From an uncultured Dorea sp. (lineage in GTDB: Bacteria > Bacillota > Clostridia > Lachnospirales > Lachnospiraceae): a DNA stretch of 28,646 nucleotides. This document shows, one piece after another, positions 15,664 to 23,559 of the stretch. The notes under the pieces were generated by a model. It saw only the letters and a list, made by a program, of their open reading frames with translations. It was not told the origin of the DNA and made no database searches. How positions within the stretch are numbered: position 1 is the first letter of the stretch; every line of letters begins with the position of its first letter. A program made the translations under genes and the position numbers. Where the stretch lies: assembly GCA_934295165.1 (NCBI GenBank), contig CAKRAT010000028.1, positions 1-28,646 of the forward strand, written 5' to 3'.

Positions 15664-16107
15664 TCATTTCTTTATCCTTCGGATATCACGTATGTGCTTC
15701 TCCGGATGCGTCACTGCCGCACTACTTTTCACCGTAAAAGCCATCCGTTTTCTTTTTGCAGTTGCCGACACTTTAATTTCCTCTTCTTCAACAGAACTCG
15801 TAACCCTGATCCCCGAAAATAAAATGCATTTTCTTCCAGTCCGTTCTTGGAACAGCGTATTTAAATCACTTTCACTGATTCCCTCTTTTTCTCTTGCTTT
15901 AGTACTTCCTACGACTGCTGTTTCATATACCACGCCTGCAATAATATTCTTGTCATGATAATAAAAACATGCCAGCACACAGCCCATAATAAGAAATAAA
16001 ATCATCGGCATCAGGAAAGACATCTCCACGGTAAAACTTCCATTCTTATAATTCTTTTTTCTATATATTTTAGTCTGCTTCATACACTTTTCTTCTATCT
16101 GCCACAT
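15664..16107 (-). CDS. TadE-like pseudopilin (second copy)
   Basis: A 147-aa minor-pilin-like protein. The N-terminus is basic (KIYRKKNYKN) followed by G23|SFTVE28, matching the class III prepilin cleavage site with Glu at +5, then a hydrophobic helix (about 29-50) and a mostly soluble, charged C-terminal part. The start ATG at 16107 has a perfect AGGAGG eight bases upstream, placed inside the end of the prepilin-peptidase gene, whose stop is one base away. TadE proteins are pseudopilins processed by the TadV peptidase and needed for Flp pilus assembly; the family assignment rests on the signal and operon context. Confidence 0.78.
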   Translation of the reverse strand: MWQIEEKCMKQTKIYRKKNYKNGSFTVEMSFLMPMILFLIMGCVLACFYYHDKNIIAGVVYETAVVGSTKAREKEGISESDLNTLFQERTGRKCILFSGIRVTSSVEEEEIKVSATAKRKRMAFTVKSSAAVTHPEKHIRDIRRIKK

Positions 16108-16108
16108 C

Positions 16109-16540
16109 TTATAAGCCTCCTATACATATCCCGAGCAGATAGCCCACTGTCAGAAAAGGATAAAACGGAACTGTCAGCCTGGTGTTTTTCCGTCTTATTA
16201 CAAGACAGAAAAGTGTCATCACTGCCAGAATAAAAAAAGATGTCGTAAGAACCTCCAGAAGCCCCCATATTCCAAGATAAATACCAAGAATCAATATTGC
16301 CAGACTGTCTCCATATCCAATCGCCTCCTGTGTGAATCTGCTCATTCCCAGAAACAATATACCGGTCAATCCGCCTATTAATGACAACCGCCAGTCCACC
16401 GCCTTTGTCACAGCCTGATAAATAATGCTCCCTGCCATACACATCATTAATATATCTCCCGGTACTTTTCTGATTTTACAATCCATAACTGAAAGCCCGG
16501 TCAGTACTCCCATTGCTATTACCCTGCTTATTGTCCACAC
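16109..16540 (-). CDS. tadV: TadV/CpaA-type prepilin peptidase (A24)
   Basis: Inner-membrane aspartic protease that removes the leader of Flp pilin and TadE-like pseudopilins. The catalytic aspartates are visible: one in SVMDCKIRKVP (D20) and one in the GYGDS motif (D78); several membrane helices surround them. The open frame extends upstream into the preceding gene, but the extra residues are not family-like. I prefer a GTG at 16540, with GGGAG about ten bases upstream, giving 143 aa and about 19 residues before the first Asp, as usual for the short TadV form. An ATG at 16513 is the alternative. With GTG the gene overlaps the upstream pseudopilin gene by 13 bases. Confidence 0.85.
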   Translation of the reverse strand: MWTISRVIAMGVLTGLSVMDCKIRKVPGDILMMCMAGSIIYQAVTKAVDWRLSLIGGLTGILFLGMSRFTQEAIGYGDSLAILILGIYLGIWGLLEVLTTSFFILAVMTLFCLVIRRKNTRLTVPFYPFLTVGYLLGICIGGL

Positions 16541-17367
16541 CTTGAACACACTCCCTTTCCTGCCGCTTCCGACACCGGTATTGCGTAAATTGTCCGTTTT
16601 AATCCACTGCAAGATAACGAACTGTGATACCGGTCTCCTGAATTTGTAATATATACATTTCCTGTATTTTCTTTCATGCAATGTTCACACGGATAATATT
16701 TTCCTCCGCTTTCATTTCGAAGTCCATCTATGTTATTCATATGTGTTATCCTGATTGACAGATCCAGATGTGAGCAATGATAATCTTTGTGATATACAAG
16801 CCCATTTTCTGCCACATAAACTATATCGTTATCCATATCCGGCAATCCTTCTTTTTCATATCCGCTCCATGCCTTTATCTTCATTGTTTCACAACAATTA
16901 ACCGATGCAATCCCGAACATTGGTACCGGAATTTTCACCTGATATTCTGCTTTCAATTTCCCGATTCCTGTCTGTACAGACATCCGCGAACCACTACAAT
17001 CAATTCCTTTGCTTCCACCAACTATAATACTTCTTGCTATCCTGTCCTCACCAATTGCATATACAACATCATTTTCTATCCGCAGCGGCATTAATAACTG
17101 TGTAACACAGGTTTCCTGTGCCGCTTTCTTTCCTGCATATTGCAGACCACTTCGTACTGCCGTGTGTACTGCCATCATTTCCATCAAATATAGCAAAGTT
17201 ATTACTGCCAGAAAAAATACCGGTACTGCAACAGCTGCCTCCACCGTAACACTTCCTTTTCTTTTATTACACAATAATTGAAATGACAGTTTTGAGGTGG
17301 ATAAAGATACCCTTTCAGATTCTAAATGATAGATAGGTTGTGAGGGGGAGATTAAATATTGTCTCAT
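16528..17367 (-). CDS. TadE-like pseudopilin with two C-terminal Cys/His modules
   Basis: A 279-aa protein starting with a 38-residue basic leader, then G38|SVTVE43 (class III cleavage site, Glu at +5) and a hydrophobic helix (about 44-66), as in TadE pseudopilins. After a central domain (about 70-175) come two tandem modules: residues 183-231 (VYVAENGLVYHKDYHCSHL ... YYPCEHC; H193, C198, C227, C230) and 238-278 (VYITNSGDRYHSSLSCSGL ... GVCSRC; H248, C253, C274, C277). This YH-x(4)-C ... CxxC pattern resembles the small Cys/His module found after some nuclease domains in Firmicutes. Metal binding or disulfide bonding outside the cell is inferred. The start lies in the loop of a long inverted repeat. 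Confidence 0.75.
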   Translation of the reverse strand: MRQYLISPSQPIYHLESERVSLSTSKLSFQLLCNKRKGSVTVEAAVAVPVFFLAVITLLYLMEMMAVHTAVRSGLQYAGKKAAQETCVTQLLMPLRIENDVVYAIGEDRIARSIIVGGSKGIDCSGSRMSVQTGIGKLKAEYQVKIPVPMFGIASVNCCETMKIKAWSGYEKEGLPDMDNDIVYVAENGLVYHKDYHCSHLDLSIRITHMNNIDGLRNESGGKYYPCEHCMKENTGNVYITNSGDRYHSSLSCSGLKRTIYAIPVSEAAGKGVCSRCGQ

Positions 17368-17455: not shown

Positions 17456-18850
17456 TTATTGATAACCATAATACGTCTGATATTTATACTGTATTCCTCT
17501 TCTTAACTTACACACCGAACTCACTTCCATTCTTCCGGCACAGTAATCGATCCGAAATGACGGTTGACCGTATATACTCTGCATATTCTTCTCAATGATC
17601 CCCATTGCCCGCATAGATACTGTTTCTTTTCCTTCCAGAAATAACAACATCCGTATATAGTCCTTATATCCAATACCGCCTTCTATATCTGCTCCGCCGC
17701 CAATATCTTCTTCTGTTCCGAGTTTCATAAGGCCCGGCAATGACAATTGCCAGCTTGTATCATCTTTTACGATAGCTGCCTTTTTCCCGTTTAACAGCGT
17801 CCTCACATCCATGACCGATTCTCCATATGCCCATGCCAGCAGAATTCCCTGTGCTGCCGCTTCTGTAATAGCCGGTACTGACAGAAGAGTACATAATGTT
17901 CCTGCCGCAGCCCTGGCTTCTGCCTGTTTCACACTGTTCGTCTGAAGATAAATATAATTCGGTACAAATCTTAACAACACCAGCTTTTTTGCAACCGATT
18001 CGAGATTTTCTTTGTCACTTTCTTTTCCCGCCAGAATATATTCCACCTCATAATCCAGACTTCCGCCTTTCGGATCATCCGAAAATGTCACAAAATGCTC
18101 CAGAACATATTCACCCATCATCACAGTACTTAATCTTCCTTCTTCTGCTTCCACATCTTCAAATGTTCCATGTCCTCTTTCATTTTCTCTGTTCTCCGGC
18201 ATATCGCTCCGATCAAGCTGTTTCTCTGACACTTGTTTTCCTTCCGGCATCACCAGATCTAAAAGCGGCGAATGCTTCAGCAGCGCTATATGTTCCATTG
18301 GATTTTCCTCACTAGGAAGTTCCATGTCCTGTTCTCCCAAAAGTTCTTCCAGATAATCTGTCTGCGTTTTTTCCTCTTCCATAAATTCATCCGCCCGCTG
18401 TTCCTGATTTTTCCAGAGAGACGTACTTCCCAGATATTTATCCGCCCACGAGATTCCGTATTTATGTTTCATATATTTCCCAACCTGATCCATAAACAGT
18501 TCCCCGTTTTTATCCGTGAGAAGTTGTATTCTTGTTATCTCATTTTCCATATCTGCTCCATAATAAGATAACCTGTCCAATATATTCTGTTCGCTGTATC
18601 TCCCGGTCTCATATCCGGCTTCTATTGCAAACACATCATAATTTTCCAGCAATTCTTTCTGATACTCAGCAAATACACATTCTATCGAGCGGTTCATATC
18701 CGCTCTTCTATAATTTTTCGCCATCTGAATTGATGCACTTTCCATTAATGCCAGAACGAGCGAAAGAAATAAGACAAATATCAATGTCAGATATACTGTA
18801 ACTTCTCCATTTACATAATCAGATGTTCTCTTTCGGACTCCCTTACATTT
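17456..18850 (-). CDS. DUF5702/TadG-like protein, start codon unresolved
   Basis: A roughly 464-residue exported protein typical of clostridial Tad operons. Recognisable homology begins at NGEVTVYLTLIFVLFLSLVL (about 18811), one membrane helix that begins like a pseudopilin helix but has Tyr, not Glu, at +5; then LMESASIQMAKNYRRADMN, ECVFAEYQKELLENYDVFA and a long outer domain (TadG-like, DUF5702). The puzzle is the start: after an AAGGGAG at 18838-18844 no in-frame ATG, GTG or TTG exists before the helix. The nearest is a GTG at 19024 that would overlap the entire flp gene. The end given here is the first codon clear of flp. A base error, a rare start or an indel are possible. Confidence 0.7.
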   Translation of the reverse strand, partial: KCKGVRKRTSDYVNGEVTVYLTLIFVLFLSLVLALMESASIQMAKNYRRADMNRSIECVFAEYQKELLENYDVFAIEAGYETGRYSEQNILDRLSYYGADMENEITRIQLLTDKNGELFMDQVGKYMKHKYGISWADKYLGSTSLWKNQEQRADEFMEEEKTQTDYLEELLGEQDMELPSEENPMEHIALLKHSPLLDLVMPEGKQVSEKQLDRSDMPENRENERGHGTFEDVEAEEGRLSTVMMGEYVLEHFVTFSDDPKGGSLDYEVEYILAGKESDKENLESVAKKLVLLRFVPNYIYLQTNSVKQAEARAAAGTLCTLLSVPAITEAAAQGILLAWAYGESVMDVRTLLNGKKAAIVKDDTSWQLSLPGLMKLGTEEDIGGGADIEGGIGYKDYIRMLLFLEGKETVSMRAMGIIEKNMQSIYGQPSFRIDYCAGRMEVSSVCKLRRGIQYKYQTYYGYQ

Positions 18851-19026
18851 TAGATTCCGGAACTTTCGCTGGTAATCTTTTCGAATATTGTCTGTACCAG
18901 ACTGGTGAGCTGTGATTTGAAAATGATAACAAGTCCGATCAAAACCACCAAAATCAATATCACTTCTACCACTCCGATCCCACGATCGTCTCTTAATACC
19001 TTTAATGCATATCGAATTCTCCACAT
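18850..19026 (-). CDS. flp: Flp-type major pilin
   Basis: A 58-aa gene, easy to miss for its size. It encodes MWRIRYALKVLRDDRG|IGV, where G16 is the likely prepilin cleavage point with Glu21 at +5, followed by a strongly hydrophobic helix (VILILVVLIGLVIIF, 22-36) and a short tail (KSQLTSLVQTIFEKITSESS). This is the size and layout of Flp/Fap pilins, though the usual Glu-Tyr pair is Glu-Val here. The ATG at 19026 is preceded by AAAGGGG eight bases upstream. Position after tadC and before the TadG/TadE-like genes fits the structural subunit of the pilus assembled by this operon; it would be cut by the TadV-type peptidase. Confidence 0.85.
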   Translation of the reverse strand: MWRIRYALKVLRDDRGIGVVEVILILVVLIGLVIIFKSQLTSLVQTIFEKITSESSGI

Positions 19027-19058: not shown

Positions 19059-20327
19059 CTATATCTGCAATGTTAAAAATGCCGGTACAATCACAATGAT
19101 CAATACCACCGTCAGCATCAAAAACATTGGCAAAAGCAATTTTGTCCCTGCCTCTTCACCAAGTTTTCTGGCTTGTGTCTTTCGTTCTTCAAATGCCTGG
19201 ATTGCTTCCATTTTCAGCAGATCTGTCAGTCCTTTGGTTCCTCTTCTCAGGTTCTGTGATAACAATGCCCCAAACCGTATATACATCTGTACATCACACC
19301 TTCTCCCAAAATTTTCATAACCTTCTGCTTCCGTTACTCCACTGTCCATCTCATGACATGTCTGTATCATCTCCTCATATGCGTATCGCTCATTTCCTTC
19401 TGTTCTCTCCCGCATATATCCTTCCGCCACTTTTCTCCATGCCCGCTTTACCGTCATTCCGGCACCCAGATATAACGTCAGTTTATTAATAATTTCCGGA
19501 TAATCTCTGATCATCTGCTTCTTTTTTTCTTCCCGTTCTTTTTTCTCATTTTGTTTTTTCAAGGCAAATAGAAGTATTCCTATTATTCCCCCCATTGCCA
19601 TTACCACAATTCCACGATTGTTAAATGGATAATAATAATAAAGATTATTTTCTCCAAGTTTTTTCGGAAGAACTAACATTTTCTTTTCTGGTTCTTTTGC
19701 ATCCGCTTTTTCTAATTTTTCTTCTACATTTCTTTGTATCTTTGCACCTCCACTCAGCTTCTTCGGATAGACACAGACTACACACTGATACAAAGCCTGC
19801 TCTTTTTCATTCTCCGTATAGGTCAGCACCGCATTCAGTTTTACAAGAGTGCCTCTTTTCTTAATATTCTTTTCCTGTAATTCCCCTTTTACATTCATCA
19901 CATCATACCGGTTCAGTTCCCAGGAGACCGCTATTGGTTCTCCCGGGATCTCTGTAACCAGATTCAGGCTGTGCTCCACATGATCCGATGTCTGGTTTTC
20001 TCCTAATATCAGCTTATCCATCCGGCGGATAGTCCTTTCAAACAAGTCCTGTATCTCTACACCAGAATACTGCCGTTCCGATACTTTTACCTGTGTTTTC
20101 ACTTTTTTCTTATGATTTTCTACTTTTACATCCAGTTCTTCCGTCCTTGTTCCTTTTCCGTAATCATTCCTCTCAATGAATGGATGAATCTGTGTTGTGG
20201 AATGCAAAATGTCTGCTCCCGTCAGTAAGCTTCCGAATATCACAATCACACTGGCAGCCAGTACTATACGTCGATTCTCAATATTCTTATTCCCAGATAA
20301 TATGCGCCTGCGTAAATTCCAAGACAT
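19059..20327 (-). CDS. tadC: TadC-like pilus platform protein with large outer insert
   Basis: A 422-aa inner-membrane platform protein (type II secretion F fold). The T2SSF part is at about 265-400 (DYPEIINKLTLYLGAGMTVKRAW, then GALLSQNLRRGTKGLTDLL, QARKLGEEAGTKLLLPM) with a last membrane helix (398-419). Unlike compact TadC proteins, it begins with a membrane helix (21-36), followed by about 200 hydrophilic residues predicted outside the cell and a second helix (239-256). That insert contains repeated Lys/Glu-rich stretches and two Cys (QCVVCVYPKK). The ATG at 20327 has GGAG upstream and overlaps tadB by 64 bases. The flp gene follows after 32 bases. Confidence 0.85.
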   Translation of the reverse strand: MSWNLRRRILSGNKNIENRRIVLAASVIVIFGSLLTGADILHSTTQIHPFIERNDYGKGTRTEELDVKVENHKKKVKTQVKVSERQYSGVEIQDLFERTIRRMDKLILGENQTSDHVEHSLNLVTEIPGEPIAVSWELNRYDVMNVKGELQEKNIKKRGTLVKLNAVLTYTENEKEQALYQCVVCVYPKKLSGGAKIQRNVEEKLEKADAKEPEKKMLVLPKKLGENNLYYYYPFNNRGIVVMAMGGIIGILLFALKKQNEKKEREEKKKQMIRDYPEIINKLTLYLGAGMTVKRAWRKVAEGYMRERTEGNERYAYEEMIQTCHEMDSGVTEAEGYENFGRRCDVQMYIRFGALLSQNLRRGTKGLTDLLKMEAIQAFEERKTQARKLGEEAGTKLLLPMFLMLTVVLIIVIVPAFLTLQI

Positions 20328-21079
20328 ACTGTCATCACTCCAATTCCTGCTATATTGCCATATAATCCATCCATAAATTCCGGAAAACTAAGTGACATAT
20401 ACCCGATAATCCCATACGGCACTGCCGACATAATCTGAAATTCATATTTTTTTGCGGCAAGCATTGTTTCAATCTCTCGTTTTACTACAATCTTATCTCT
20501 GATTTGATTCGTTGTATTACGAATGATATCAATCATATCTCCACCGCTTTTCTTTGCTGTTACAAATACTGTTACAAAGTTTTTCACATCCTCCGATGGA
20601 ACCTGTTCCGCAAATTCTTCCAATACTTGTTCCACCGGTATGTGTATCCGCAGTTTTCTCGTAATAATCCGCAATTCTTTTGAAATTCTTGTTTCTTCCG
20701 AATACAGAATCTTAAGTTCTTTCTGTGTTTCATAAAACGCATTTTCCACCGAATATCCGGTATTAAGTGCTGCTGACAAAGACTGTATCATCTCCTGGAA
20801 TTGCTTTTGAAATTCCTGTTCCTTCTTTTTTCTTTCTTCCTCCAGAAATTCTCTGTACAGCCATATTCCCGGTGGGATTAAAAATATTACCGCCCAGATA
20901 TTCCGGTAATAAAGCCATGCTGTAATCCCCAGAATTATCGTCATTTTTATCCCTGCTGCTCCCCGCTCTTTAAATGTGATATCCTGCTGCCACAAGCTTT
21001 TCGCAGTGATAAAGTTCCGCAGTTTTTTTCCACTCTCCGTTGATCTTATCTTCATCACTAATTTTTTTACATTTTTCAT
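20264..21079 (-). CDS. tadB: TadB-like pilus platform protein
   Basis: A type II secretion F-fold inner-membrane protein that, with TadC, forms the platform on which ATPase TadA acts. After a soluble N-terminus come two close helices (about 46-75), the T2SSF core (QFQEMIQSLSAALNTGYSVENAFYE, then VPSEDVKNFVTVFVTAKKSGGDM), and two C-terminal helices. The start is uncertain: ATG 21079 (used here, 271 aa) has no well-placed ribosome binding site and overlaps tadA by 110 bases; ATG 20944 has AGGG six bases upstream and no overlap but removes residues (DITFKERG) that look family-like; a TTG at 20995 lies between. The 3' end overlaps tadC by 64 bases. Confidence 0.85.
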   Translation of the reverse strand: MKNVKKLVMKIRSTESGKKLRNFITAKSLWQQDITFKERGAAGIKMTIILGITAWLYYRNIWAVIFLIPPGIWLYREFLEEERKKKEQEFQKQFQEMIQSLSAALNTGYSVENAFYETQKELKILYSEETRISKELRIITRKLRIHIPVEQVLEEFAEQVPSEDVKNFVTVFVTAKKSGGDMIDIIRNTTNQIRDKIVVKREIETMLAAKKYEFQIMSAVPYGIIGYMSLSFPEFMDGLYGNIAGIGVMTVCLGIYAGAYYLGIRILRIDV

Positions 21080-22232
21080 CCTTTGTTACATTTTCCGCCT
21101 CCTTATGGATTTCTTCGTAGCGGTACAATGGCTGCAAATGGATTTCCTGACTCCAATATCCCAGAACTTCTGTCACCTCCAGTACCTTTCTACTTTTGTC
21201 CCTGAGCCTCCCAAGATGTACGATGATATCCAGACCGGATGCAATCTGCCTTTGAATTGCAGGAAGTGGAAGATCCATCCCCATCAATACCATAGTTTCC
21301 AGACGGCTTAACATATCCCTGGGACTATTTGCATGTCCGGTGCTGAGACTTCCGTCATGCCCCGTATTAAGTGCCTGAAGCATATCAATTGCTTCCGCCG
21401 AGCGCACTTCCCCTACGATGATCCTGTCCGGTCTCATACGAAGTGCCGACTTGATCAGATCCCGAATCGTAACTTCTCCGGTCCCTTCTACATTTGCATT
21501 TCTTGCTTCCAGCTTTACCAGATTCTTTACATTTTGAATTTGAAGTTCCGCATTGTCTTCGATCGTTATGATGCGTTCATTTTTTGGTATATATTGCGAT
21601 AGTGCATTCAAGAAAGTGGTTTTCCCTGATCCGGTTCCCCCACTGATGAATATATTGTATCCGGCGGCCACTAATGCGGCCAGAAAGCCTGATACTTCTG
21701 AATTGATTGACTGCCATTCCATCAGTTTTTTCATTGTAATTGCTTCTTTTGCAAATTTTCGAATTGTAACGATCGGTCCGTTTATTGCGACCGGCGGAAG
21801 TACAACGTTGACTCGTGAGCCATCTGCCAGTCTGGCATCTACAATCGGTGATGCCTCATTTACCAGTCTGTTTGATCCTGCCACAATTTGCTGGATTACA
21901 TCCTCCAGTTTGTCCCTGGATAAGAATCTTTTATCCGACTGAAATATTCTTCCTGATTTTTCGATAAATATATTCTGCGTCCCGTTGATCATAATCTCTG
22001 TAATCTCATCGTCTTCCAGAAATTCCTGCAACAGATCTAATTTCCGGAATGCATTGAAAAGTTCTTTTCCAAGCATTGTTTTCTGATCCAACGGCAGATA
22101 TTCTTCCTGTGAAACCTCCTGAAGTACTTCATAGATCAACTCTGTCAGCTCTTCATCCTCCATATCCCTTGTCATATCCATTCTGGCAAGAATCCTTGCA
22201 TGGAGCTGCTCTGCTTCTATCATTCTTCTCAT
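20970..22232 (-). CDS. tadA: TadA/CpaF-type pilus assembly ATPase
   Basis: A hexameric secretion ATPase that drives Flp pilus assembly from the cytoplasm. The 420-aa protein has an N-terminal domain (1-110), the CpaF core [18 protein letters not shown], the [17 protein letters not shown] segment (131-147), Walker [11 protein letters not shown] (197-206), Asp-box [11 protein letters not shown] (221-231), Walker [13 protein letters not shown] (270-281) with Glu275, and His-box [13 protein letters not shown] (291-303). All catalytic elements are intact. The ATG overlaps the tadZ stop as ATGA (22229-22232), indicating translational coupling. The C-terminal 60 residues are hydrophilic and Lys/Glu-rich. 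Confidence 0.95.
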
Positions 22233-23146
22233 CCTTCCAGCTCTTTTTTTATCATCTTCTGTCTTACATCATCATAGCCCATCAGATGTAATTCTTCTTC
22301 AAACTGGAATAATTTTGCCTTCGCCGCCTCCTCTTTTATTACTGCTACATGTACTTCTGTACACATTCTCAAAAGTTCGTATACACCACGGATTCCTTCG
22401 TCAATATCAATTATCAGCACTTCGTATATACTCTGATCTGCGACCTGCTCCACAAAGTCTGTCCACTCATCAATTTCTACTGCCTTCAGATCTTCCGACA
22501 TCCGCATAGGCAGAAGACAATCAAGCTGTCCCATATGTTTTACCATACCCGCAAGAGCTGCTCTTAAGCGCTTCTTTTCTTGTCTGGAATAATAAAGTGC
22601 ATCCGCTATCGTCTGTCCTGTCTCCGGAAAATGCCCCCCAATGCCTCCGTATATTTCAAGATTCAAATACAATACATTGTACGTCCTTGCCAGTTCTTTT
22701 CCCAGACTTAATGCATAGCTGGTCTTTTTACTTCTATGCACCGGGGAAAATATTCCTATGATCCGAACCTTCTGTTTCTTCGCTGTCCTTAGAAAAAATC
22801 TTTCCGATTCTCCGGACTGCATACACTGTTCGATCACCGCTTCTATAATGGCTTCTCCGGACTGGTACTTGTTAATAAGTTTCTCATGCATCTCATGTGC
22901 TGCATCTTCTGACTGTGCCAGAACAAACACACTCCCGGCCTTTACTTTCTTTCTGTCTTCGATCGGGTATCCGCTTCCGATCAACAGAATATCAATCGGA
23001 GATTCCTCCTGTAAGTTTAAAGCCTGTGCAACACTGTTACACACATGTACGCCAAGCGCCAGCTTCTGCGTCTTCATAAAAAATCCCGCAAGTGCCGCTG
23101 CGTATCTTTCTTCCTGGTCGCAAATCACCAGATTTCTGCTTACCAC
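22229..23146 (-). CDS. tadZ: TadZ/CpaE-like ParA-family pilus localisation protein
   Basis: A 305-aa protein with an N-terminal receiver-like domain (1-110; starts NLVICDQEERYAAALAGFF) and a C-terminal MinD/ParA-like domain. In place of the deviant Walker A KGGxGKTS it has SPVHRSKKTS (134-143): both glycines are gone but KKTS is kept. Walker B is LIIDIDEG (244-251). TadZ proteins place the Tad machine in the cell; CpaE-like members often bind but may not hydrolyse ATP, and this loop suggests altered nucleotide handling. The start is a GTG at 23146 with AGGAGG eight bases upstream; a closer ATG two bases before it hits a stop after one codon. First gene of the pilus operon. Confidence 0.82.
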   Translation of the reverse strand: MVSRNLVICDQEERYAAALAGFFMKTQKLALGVHVCNSVAQALNLQEESPIDILLIGSGYPIEDRKKVKAGSVFVLAQSEDAAHEMHEKLINKYQSGEAIIEAVIEQCMQSGESERFFLRTAKKQKVRIIGIFSPVHRSKKTSYALSLGKELARTYNVLYLNLEIYGGIGGHFPETGQTIADALYYSRQEKKRLRAALAGMVKHMGQLDCLLPMRMSEDLKAVEIDEWTDFVEQVADQSIYEVLIIDIDEGIRGVYELLRMCTEVHVAVIKEEAAKAKLFQFEEELHLMGYDDVRQKMIKKELEG

Positions 23147-23349: not shown

Positions 23350-23559
23350 TTACATAATCTGATAAAAAGTTATGCCATAAAGCAGGGCAACCCCAGGAAA
23401 TCCAAGGGTTCCGGATGTCAAAAAAGTTATCGGATTCATGCCAACACAGGCTGAAATCCCCTGCCCGTCAAGAAATTCGTTTACAAAAAATATGATTGCC
23501 AGCCCAATTATCCCCCGAATCAAAAAATTTATAATGATTTTTGTTCCCCATTTTTTCAT
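23350..23559 (-). CDS. bofA: BofA-family membrane protein (pro-sigma-K processing inhibitor type)
   Basis: A 69-aa membrane protein with two hydrophobic segments (about 8-27 and 46-66). The stretch GMNPITFLTSGTLGFPGVAL is the conserved C-terminal mark of the BofA family. In Bacillus, BofA holds the SpoIVFB protease inactive in the mother cell until engulfment is complete. This copy is shorter than the roughly 87-aa Bacillus protein at its N-terminus. The start ATG at 23559 has only a weak AGAGA upstream; a TATAAT lies at 23591-23596 on this strand. It is separate from the operon upstream (terminator at 23649-23690) and just before the pilus promoter. No spoIVFB or sigK is in the window. Confidence 0.85.
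   Translation of the reverse strand: MKKWGTKIIINFLIRGIIGLAIIFFVNEFLDGQGISACVGMNPITFLTSGTLGFPGVALLYGITFYQIM

What the first reader, a model, noticed from the sequence alone, without database searches (positions are those of the whole stretch)
16528..16821. Pseudopilin fused to two tandem Cys/His modules
Seen: a TadE-type protein (class III cleavage site and helix) ends in two modules with the order VY..G..YH-x(4)-C ... CxxC (H193, C198, C227, C230; H248, C253, C274, C277). The spacing and the YH/PCxxC pattern recall a small module appended to secreted nucleases in Firmicutes. On a surface pilus it could bind metal, DNA or a surface, or form disulfides that lock the pilus tip. I know of no description of this fusion.
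Basis: partly seen in the sequence, partly recalled or inferred. Interest (0 to 1): 0.7.

Follow-up and report, generated by a model that had tools for sequence, protein, structure and literature searches.

The report
Tad pilin with twin metal-binding tips
A minor pilus protein found in nearly all sampled Lachnospiraceae genomes ends in two small modules with invariant histidines and cysteines that most likely hold zinc, and relatives of the module sit on many other, mostly exported, proteins, nucleases among them.

Summary
The ORF at 16528-17367 (minus strand, 279 aa) has a prepilin cleavage site (G38|SVTVE) and two C-terminal modules VY..G..YH-x4-C...CxxC. It lies in a Tad locus.

The tail is no oddity of this genome: its profile matches 286 of 299 genomes drawn from one family, that of Sporofaciens musculi, and divergent forms occur in order- and class-level samples. 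In 67 diverse tails the only invariant columns are the eight His/Cys. Gene order is conserved.

The module is homologous to a single C-terminal module on many, mostly exported, clostridial proteins: nucleases, ComEC-like MBL hydrolases, others. That set is in turn related to Pfam Ada_Zn_binding.

An invariant His and three Cys per module, with no other Cys in ten single-module ORFs, favour H-C3 metal sites over disulfides. Best reading: a modular Tad minor pilin displaying two zinc-stabilised binding heads. Metal, position and ligand are unmeasured; DNA is a live but untested candidate. PDB fold searches gave nothing useful. New variant of a known kind (modular pilins).

The parts
16528..17367 (-). 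TadE-like minor pseudopilin with two C-terminal His/Cys modules, 279 aa
17239..17256 (-). class III (prepilin) cleavage site G38|SVTVE43
   Evidence: read from sequence; conserved
17110..17253 (-). N-terminal alpha1 helix, residues 39-86
   Evidence: AF2 model
16873..16965 (-). two beta strands of the pilin head, within residues 135-165
   Evidence: AF2 model
16672..16824 (-). module 1, residues 182-232: H193, C198, C227, C230 (codons 16789-16791, 16774-16776, 16687-16689, 16678-16680)
16531..16659 (-). module 2, residues 237-279: H248, C253, C274, C277 (codons 16624-16626, 16609-16611, 16546-16548, 16537-16539)
17456..19024 (-). DUF5702 protein, immediately upstream; its true start is probably inside this ORF, which overlaps the Flp pilin
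   Evidence: PF18960 E 7e-91
18850..19026 (-). Flp-type pilin, 58 aa
   Evidence: PF16982 E 6.5e-23
16109..16681 (-). prepilin peptidase ORF (TadV-like); the listed TTG start lies inside the finding's gene, so the true start is probably further down
   Evidence: PF01478 29.5 bits; the name TadV is recalled
15664..16107 (-). second TadE protein
   Evidence: PF07811 36.5 bits
14898..15647 (-). DUF6382 protein
   Evidence: PF19909 E 1.3e-46
19059..20327 (-). TadC-like platform protein
   Evidence: PF00482 23.8 bits, just below cut-off 25.2; the name TadC is recalled
20264..21079 (-). TadB-like platform protein
   Evidence: PF00482 38.3 bits; the name TadB is recalled
20970..22232 (-). TadA-type ATPase
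   Evidence: PF00437 E 1.2e-57; the name TadA is recalled
22229..23146 (-). TadZ-like protein
   Evidence: PF21194 17.5 bits, below cut-off 27.4

Best explanation
The gene encodes a modular minor pilin of a clostridial Tad (type IVc) pilus. After cleavage at G38|S39 its helix would pack with the other TadE/Flp-type subunits, and the pilin head would carry two tandem small domains outward. Each domain most likely binds one zinc (or another soft metal) through one His and three Cys. The domain is a relative of the Ada zinc-binding module, used here outside the cytoplasm as two binding heads at the tip or base of the pilus; the second, basic head probably makes contact with an anionic ligand (nucleic acid, wall polymer or mucin glycan). 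Shown by calls: the anatomy, the conservation, the synteny, and the homology to the single module on other proteins. Inferred: metal binding, position in the pilus, and ligand.
For: Eight His/Cys are the only invariant columns in 67 tails at 24-71% identity to the window's tail. H-x4-C spacing holds in 115 of 116 (module 1) and 114 of 116 (module 2) arrays, of which 97 are distinct sequences. The AF2 tail model has mean pLDDT 91.9 and shows three strands then a helix in module 1 and three strands then a 3-residue helical turn in module 2. Locus: DUF5702 upstream in 74 of 74 testable loci, prepilin peptidase downstream in 78 of 78, TadE 70 of 75, DUF6382 71 of 73, TadA 66 of 68. DUF5702 is present in 12 of 12 tail-positive and 1 of 13 tail-negative genomes tested. 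The 116 two-module arrays all sit on pseudopilin-like proteins: 107 by pattern, 9 by eye, one of these (L116) without the +5 Glu; the loci had been fetched with pilin or tail profiles. Profile homology to single modules: 98.5%, score 67.9 against a shuffle maximum of 23.4; single modules to Ada_Zn_binding: 97.4%, 53.9 against 21.7. Ten of 51 non-pilin module ORFs hold exactly three Cys in all; two of the ten (L172, L194) have no ATG in frame, so the count is firm for eight. Module 2 has mean net charge +3.6, module 1 -1.1. Tad minor pilins as tip complexes with variable domains: PMC12075869 (abstract and passages). Modular pilins with grafted domains: PMC10191384 (passages).
Against: No metal, ligand or location was measured. 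The direct profile comparison of the tail modules with Ada_Zn_binding is weak (A3-A6 10%, 4 of 60 shuffles as good; A4-A6 35%, 0 of 60 but a narrow margin of 24.0 over 22.1), so the Ada link rests on the intermediate set, and that set (A5) was itself gathered with the tail profile. Foldseek and VIA-align found no PDB relative of the tail. Ten of 51 single-module ORFs show no strong hydrophobic N-terminal segment, and three carry an M78 peptidase domain, so the module is not strictly extracytoplasmic. In Micrococcus luteus TadE/F were not detected in sheared pili and the authors favoured a base or wall-spanning role (PMC4322843, passages), which argues against the tip. The full-length model is only moderate (pLDDT 73, pTM 0.46). 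No coordinates were available, so ligand geometry was not checked. One tail-negative genome, G017, has a Tad locus whose TadE lacks the modules.
Confidence: 0.62

Rival explanations
1. Disulfide-locked tail: the six Cys form three disulfides that stiffen an extracellular pilin head, and the His are incidental.
For: The tail is predicted to lie outside the cytoplasm, and the six Cys per tail (exactly six in 102 of 116 arrays) could all pair.
Against: The His are as invariant as the Cys. Single modules have three Cys, and ten of 51 sit in ORFs with no other Cys (firm for eight), so these cannot all pair within one chain; disulfides between chains are not excluded. The related Ada_Zn_binding family is a metal site by name.
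Confidence: 0.15
2. Purely structural: the zinc modules only cap and stabilise the minor pilin or its contact with DUF5702 and TadE, and bind nothing outside. (Not exclusive of metal binding in the main reading.)
For: Near-universal presence in the sampled family and strict synteny with DUF5702 fit an assembly part; recalled: variable adhesins usually diverge faster.
Against: The same kind of module is used C-terminally on unrelated enzymes and Ig-type proteins, where it cannot serve pilus assembly.
Confidence: 0.3
3. DNA-capture head: the modules bind extracellular DNA and the Tad pilus is the uptake pilus of these bacteria. (A special case of the main reading.)
For: Module partners include 2 SNase, 2 Endonuclease_NS and 13 ComEC-like MBL proteins of 51 (recalled: the Ada zinc domain contacts DNA). 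Module 2 is basic. ComEC is in 25 of 25 genomes tested and ComEA over its cut-off in 23 of 25. R. gnavus and E. ventriosum are listed with a tad operon but no pil or com operon (PMC3244431, table passage). Tad/Flp pili serve transformation in M. luteus (PMC4322843, passages).
Against: ComEC is kept in 7 of 7 and ComEA over cut-off in 6 of 7 genomes without a strong TadA hit, so there is no co-loss. Many partners have no link to nucleic acid (copper amine oxidase N1 in 9 of 51). No binding data.
Confidence: 0.15
4. Metal or redox sensor: loss of zinc on oxidation changes pilus behaviour on oxygen exposure.
For: Inference only: H-C3 sites in an anaerobe could oxidise.
Against: Nothing here tests it.
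Confidence: 0.07

Closest known systems
Single C-terminal YH-C-CxxC module of clostridial SNases, ComEC-like MBL hydrolases and other proteins (no family name found)
   Same: Order H, C, CxxC; VY..G..YH lead; C-terminal in 51 of 51; profile match 98.5%
   Different: One copy, usually H-x3-C (37 of 51; H-x4-C in 14); tailed pilins mostly have two copies, H-x4-C, and module 1 mostly has 28 rather than 20 residues before CxxC
Pfam PF02805 Ada_Zn_binding
   Same: Four ligands in the same order; C-terminal on SNase- and MBL-type proteins too (classes by eye); related through the single modules
   Different: The tail does not reach the Pfam cut-off; His replaces the first Cys of Ada proper, as it also does in the secreted PF02805 members (recalled: that Cys is the methyl acceptor in Ada)
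Modular type IV minor pilins with grafted C-terminal domains (PilB/PilC of Streptococcus sanguinis; PMC10191384, PMC6916266, passages)
   Same: Pilin plus C-terminal functional domain
   Different: Here the Tad class, with tiny metal modules instead of lectin or vWA domains
TadE/F/G tip complexes of Tad pili (PMC12075869, abstract and passages)
   Same: Minor pilins of the Tad locus, proposed to expose variable domains at the tip
   Different: The passages read deal with Myxococcus and other Gram-negatives; no such module is mentioned in them

Membership tests
TadE/TadF-type minor pseudopilin | class III site with Glu +5 and hydrophobic N-terminal helix | tested here: met
TadE/TadF-type minor pseudopilin | encoded in a tad locus beside prepilin peptidase and pilus ATPase | tested here: met
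Pfam PF07811 TadE | score over curated cut-off | tested here: not met
   14.6 against 22.9 bits; only 3 of 55 homologues match at E 0.01. Hence called TadE-like, not a PF07811 member
Pfam PF02805 Ada_Zn_binding | score over curated cut-off | tested here: not met
   not among the 18 families matched by 36 tails at E 1; single modules reach E 0.002-0.11, below cut-off where shown
Pfam PF02805 Ada_Zn_binding | four ligand positions ending in CxxC | tested here: met
   as H-C-C-C; metal itself not tested
Pfam PF02805 Ada_Zn_binding | same fold | tested here: inconclusive
   no PDB match by Foldseek or VIA
Single YH-C-CxxC module | profile similarity with ligands in register | tested here: met
Modular pilin | C-terminal domain that also occurs on non-pilin proteins | tested here: met
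Modular pilin | domain exposed on the filament | not testable with these tools
   needs microscopy or surface labelling

The most novel reading that the evidence does not exclude
The twin Ada-type modules form a nucleic-acid-binding head, and the clostridial Tad pilus is the DNA-capture and uptake pilus of Lachnospiraceae, feeding the ComEA/ComEC they keep, in species that have no com or pil pilus.
Probability: 0.12. Interest if true: 0.85.

Novelty: new variant of a known kind. Interest (0 to 1): 0.55.

Why it matters
Lachnospiraceae are dominant gut anaerobes (recalled) and nearly all sampled genomes of the family carry this tail, yet no Pfam or NCBIfam model was found to cover it, and the paper searches listed no description of it. 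It names a likely functional end of a Tad pilus of uncharted role, and ties it to an unnamed metal module shared with nucleases and ComEC-like hydrolases. Both can be tested with one 100-residue protein.

Tried and rejected

Competence co-loss test: ComEC in 25 of 25 genomes; ComEA over cut-off in 23 of 25, missing in the tail-negative G101 and G235; so no clear correlation with Tad.

Tail-negative genomes: 13 of 299. DUF5702 is lacking in 12 of the 13. A strong TadA hit (E below 1e-100) is in 6; G179 has a weak one, E 8e-24. Of the 6, contigs end within about 2 kb downstream of TadA in G058, G073 and G265; in G235 the cluster stops after a TadB/C-like ORF; G294 has a truncated TadA beside a recombinase; G017 has a different Tad locus whose TadE lacks the modules, a true exception. 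In one search at most 16 candidates per genome were scored, the match list was cut, and not all 286 hits were inspected; 284 of 299 have best E of 1e-12 or less. The two weaker ones, G078 and G206, do carry two-module pseudopilins.

One search's pattern missed 12 of the first 80 loci; 10 of these have intact tails, L043 and L050 are broken.

Of 35 rows listed I fetched 18 regions, covering 20 rows: 11 pseudopilins with two modules and 7 other proteins with one. From one search's longer list I used the 30 loci it returned and 20 further regions, not all rows. The class-level pseudopilins L173, L179, L182, L183 (one module) and L195-L197 (two) come from genomes whose order is not told; Tad neighbours were seen for L195-L197 only, and a Pfam scan of L173, L179, L197 and L127 was not completed. 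One search's set of 53 'non-pilin' ORFs still held two pseudopilins (L173, L196); I count 51, as.

Full report
What is there. The ORF at 16528-17367 on the minus strand encodes 279 residues. It has a prepilin site G38|SVTVE43, a long N-terminal helix and a short pilin head, and a tail of two modules with H193, C198, C227, C230 and H248, C253, C274, C277. The DNA was read. It lies between a DUF5702 gene and a prepilin peptidase gene in a locus with a T2SSE ATPase, two T2SSF-type platform proteins (one just below the Pfam cut-off), a Flp1-like pilin, a second TadE that passes the Pfam cut-off, and DUF6382. The finding's own protein is below the Pfam TadE cut-off, so I call it TadE-like.

How general it is. 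A protein search returned 1449 relatives at E <= 1e-3 (120 listed). A scan of species genomes confirmed 273 stretches, 80 kept, mostly with Lachnospiraceae-type names such as Dorea, Faecalicatena, Mediterraneibacter and Butyrivibrio, a few only as Clostridia or Eubacteriales. With a profile of the tail, 286 of 299 genomes of the family of G001 (the genome of L005, Sporofaciens musculi) match at E <= 1e-3, 284 of them at 1e-12 or less. In a sample spread over the phylum 7 of 149 genomes match at E <= 0.01: 2 carry the double tail, 5 a single module on another protein. At order level 28 of 116 genomes match at E <= 1e-3; of 18 regions fetched, 11 hold divergent pseudopilins with two modules and 7 other proteins with one. 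Seven more pseudopilins, four with one module and three with two, come from the class-level sample.

Link to the Tad locus. In the 80 loci DUF5702 is just upstream in 74 of 74 testable cases, the prepilin peptidase just downstream in 78 of 78, TadE in 70 of 75, DUF6382 in 71 of 73, TadA upstream in 66 of 68. DUF5702 is found in 12 of 12 tail-positive genomes tested and 1 of 13 tail-negative ones. The six tail-negative genomes with a strong TadA hit are cut or incomplete loci (four), an interrupted locus (G294), and one, G017, with a different Tad locus whose TadE lacks the modules.

Conservation. In 67 diverse tails the only invariant columns are the eight His/Cys. H-x4-C holds in 115 and 114 of 116 arrays; the stretch before CxxC is 28 in 104 of 116 (module 1) and 20 in 107 of 116 (module 2) (97 distinct sequences). 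The tail model is confident (mean pLDDT 91.9) and shows three strands followed by a helix in module 1 and by a three-residue helical turn in module 2, as expected of a duplication.

What the module is. Single modules found with these profiles sit at the C-terminus of 51 of 51 non-pilin ORFs examined. At E <= 0.01, 13 match MBL families and the ComEC/Rec2 model (best 1e-51), 9 copper amine oxidase N1, 3 M78 peptidase, 3 Big_2, 2 SNase, 2 Endonuclease_NS_2, among others (the 25 commonest families shown). By a simple script 41 of the 51 have a hydrophobic N-terminal segment; ten do not, three of them (L184, L194, L207) lacking an ATG in frame. Tail modules and single modules match at 98.5% probability with ligands in register; single modules and PF02805 members at 97.4%; no shuffle that kept the ligand columns came near (0 of 60 each). 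The single-module set had been gathered with the tail profile, so its likeness to the tail is partly by choice; the PF02805 set was gathered independently. The direct comparison of tail modules with PF02805 is weak: A3-A6 4 of 60 shuffles as good, A4-A6 0 of 60 by a narrow margin. So the tail belongs to a family of modules related to Ada_Zn_binding without being a PF02805 member.

Metal or disulfide. The His is as invariant as the Cys. Each module has three conserved Cys, and ten of 51 single-module ORFs have no Cys beyond those three (firm for eight). Complete pairing within one chain is therefore impossible there, though disulfides between chains are not excluded, while an H-C3 metal site fits and matches the related metal-binding family. 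Zinc is an inference; no tool here measured it.

Function. Minor pilins of Tad pili are proposed to form tip complexes that expose variable domains (PMC12075869, abstract and passages), and grafted domains on minor pilins are a known design (PMC10191384 and PMC6916266, passages). PMC6916266 also cites work in which Bifidobacterium breve TadE promotes epithelial proliferation. Against the tip, TadE/F were not found in sheared M. luteus pili (PMC4322843, passages). The partners (nucleases, ComEC-like hydrolases) and the basic second module hint at nucleic acid; partners without such a link and the lack of co-loss with ComEC/ComEA keep this open.

Novelty. Searches for the fusion and for the module listed no paper that describes it; the library holds open-licence papers only, so this is not proof. 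PMC3244431, which surveyed Gram-positive tad operons, has no occurrence of 'zinc' or of words beginning with 'cys' in its main text (term counts and passages). I rate it a new variant of a known kind: a modular pilin, in the Tad class, with twin metal modules.

Noticed in passing
window 23350-23559 (-): BofA (sigma-K processing regulator, PF07441) sits directly upstream of the Tad locus; a BofA match is present in 54 of 80 related loci, not all of which reach that far.
   Followed up: partly
L123, L125, L126, L134, L135, L142, L143: SNase- and MBL-type proteins carry the single module at their C-terminus; others of the same two classes carry PF02805 at that place (L154-L158, L160, L164; classes partly by eye): two related modules on the same kinds of host protein.
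   Followed up: partly
L150 (genome G294): Tad locus with a truncated TadA ORF beside a recombinase-like ORF: probably interrupted by a mobile element.
   Followed up: no
L145 5314-10920 (genome G017): A different Tad locus in the sampled family: a 1175-aa DUF5702-like protein and TadE-like proteins without the modules.
   Followed up: no
L043 and L050: Broken copies of the tailed pilin gene: frameshift into the prepilin peptidase frame (L043) and early truncation (L050).
   Followed up: no
proteins P0017 and P0033: Relatives of 413 and 416 aa annotated with PF01478: apparent fusions of the tailed pilin with the neighbouring prepilin peptidase.
   Followed up: no
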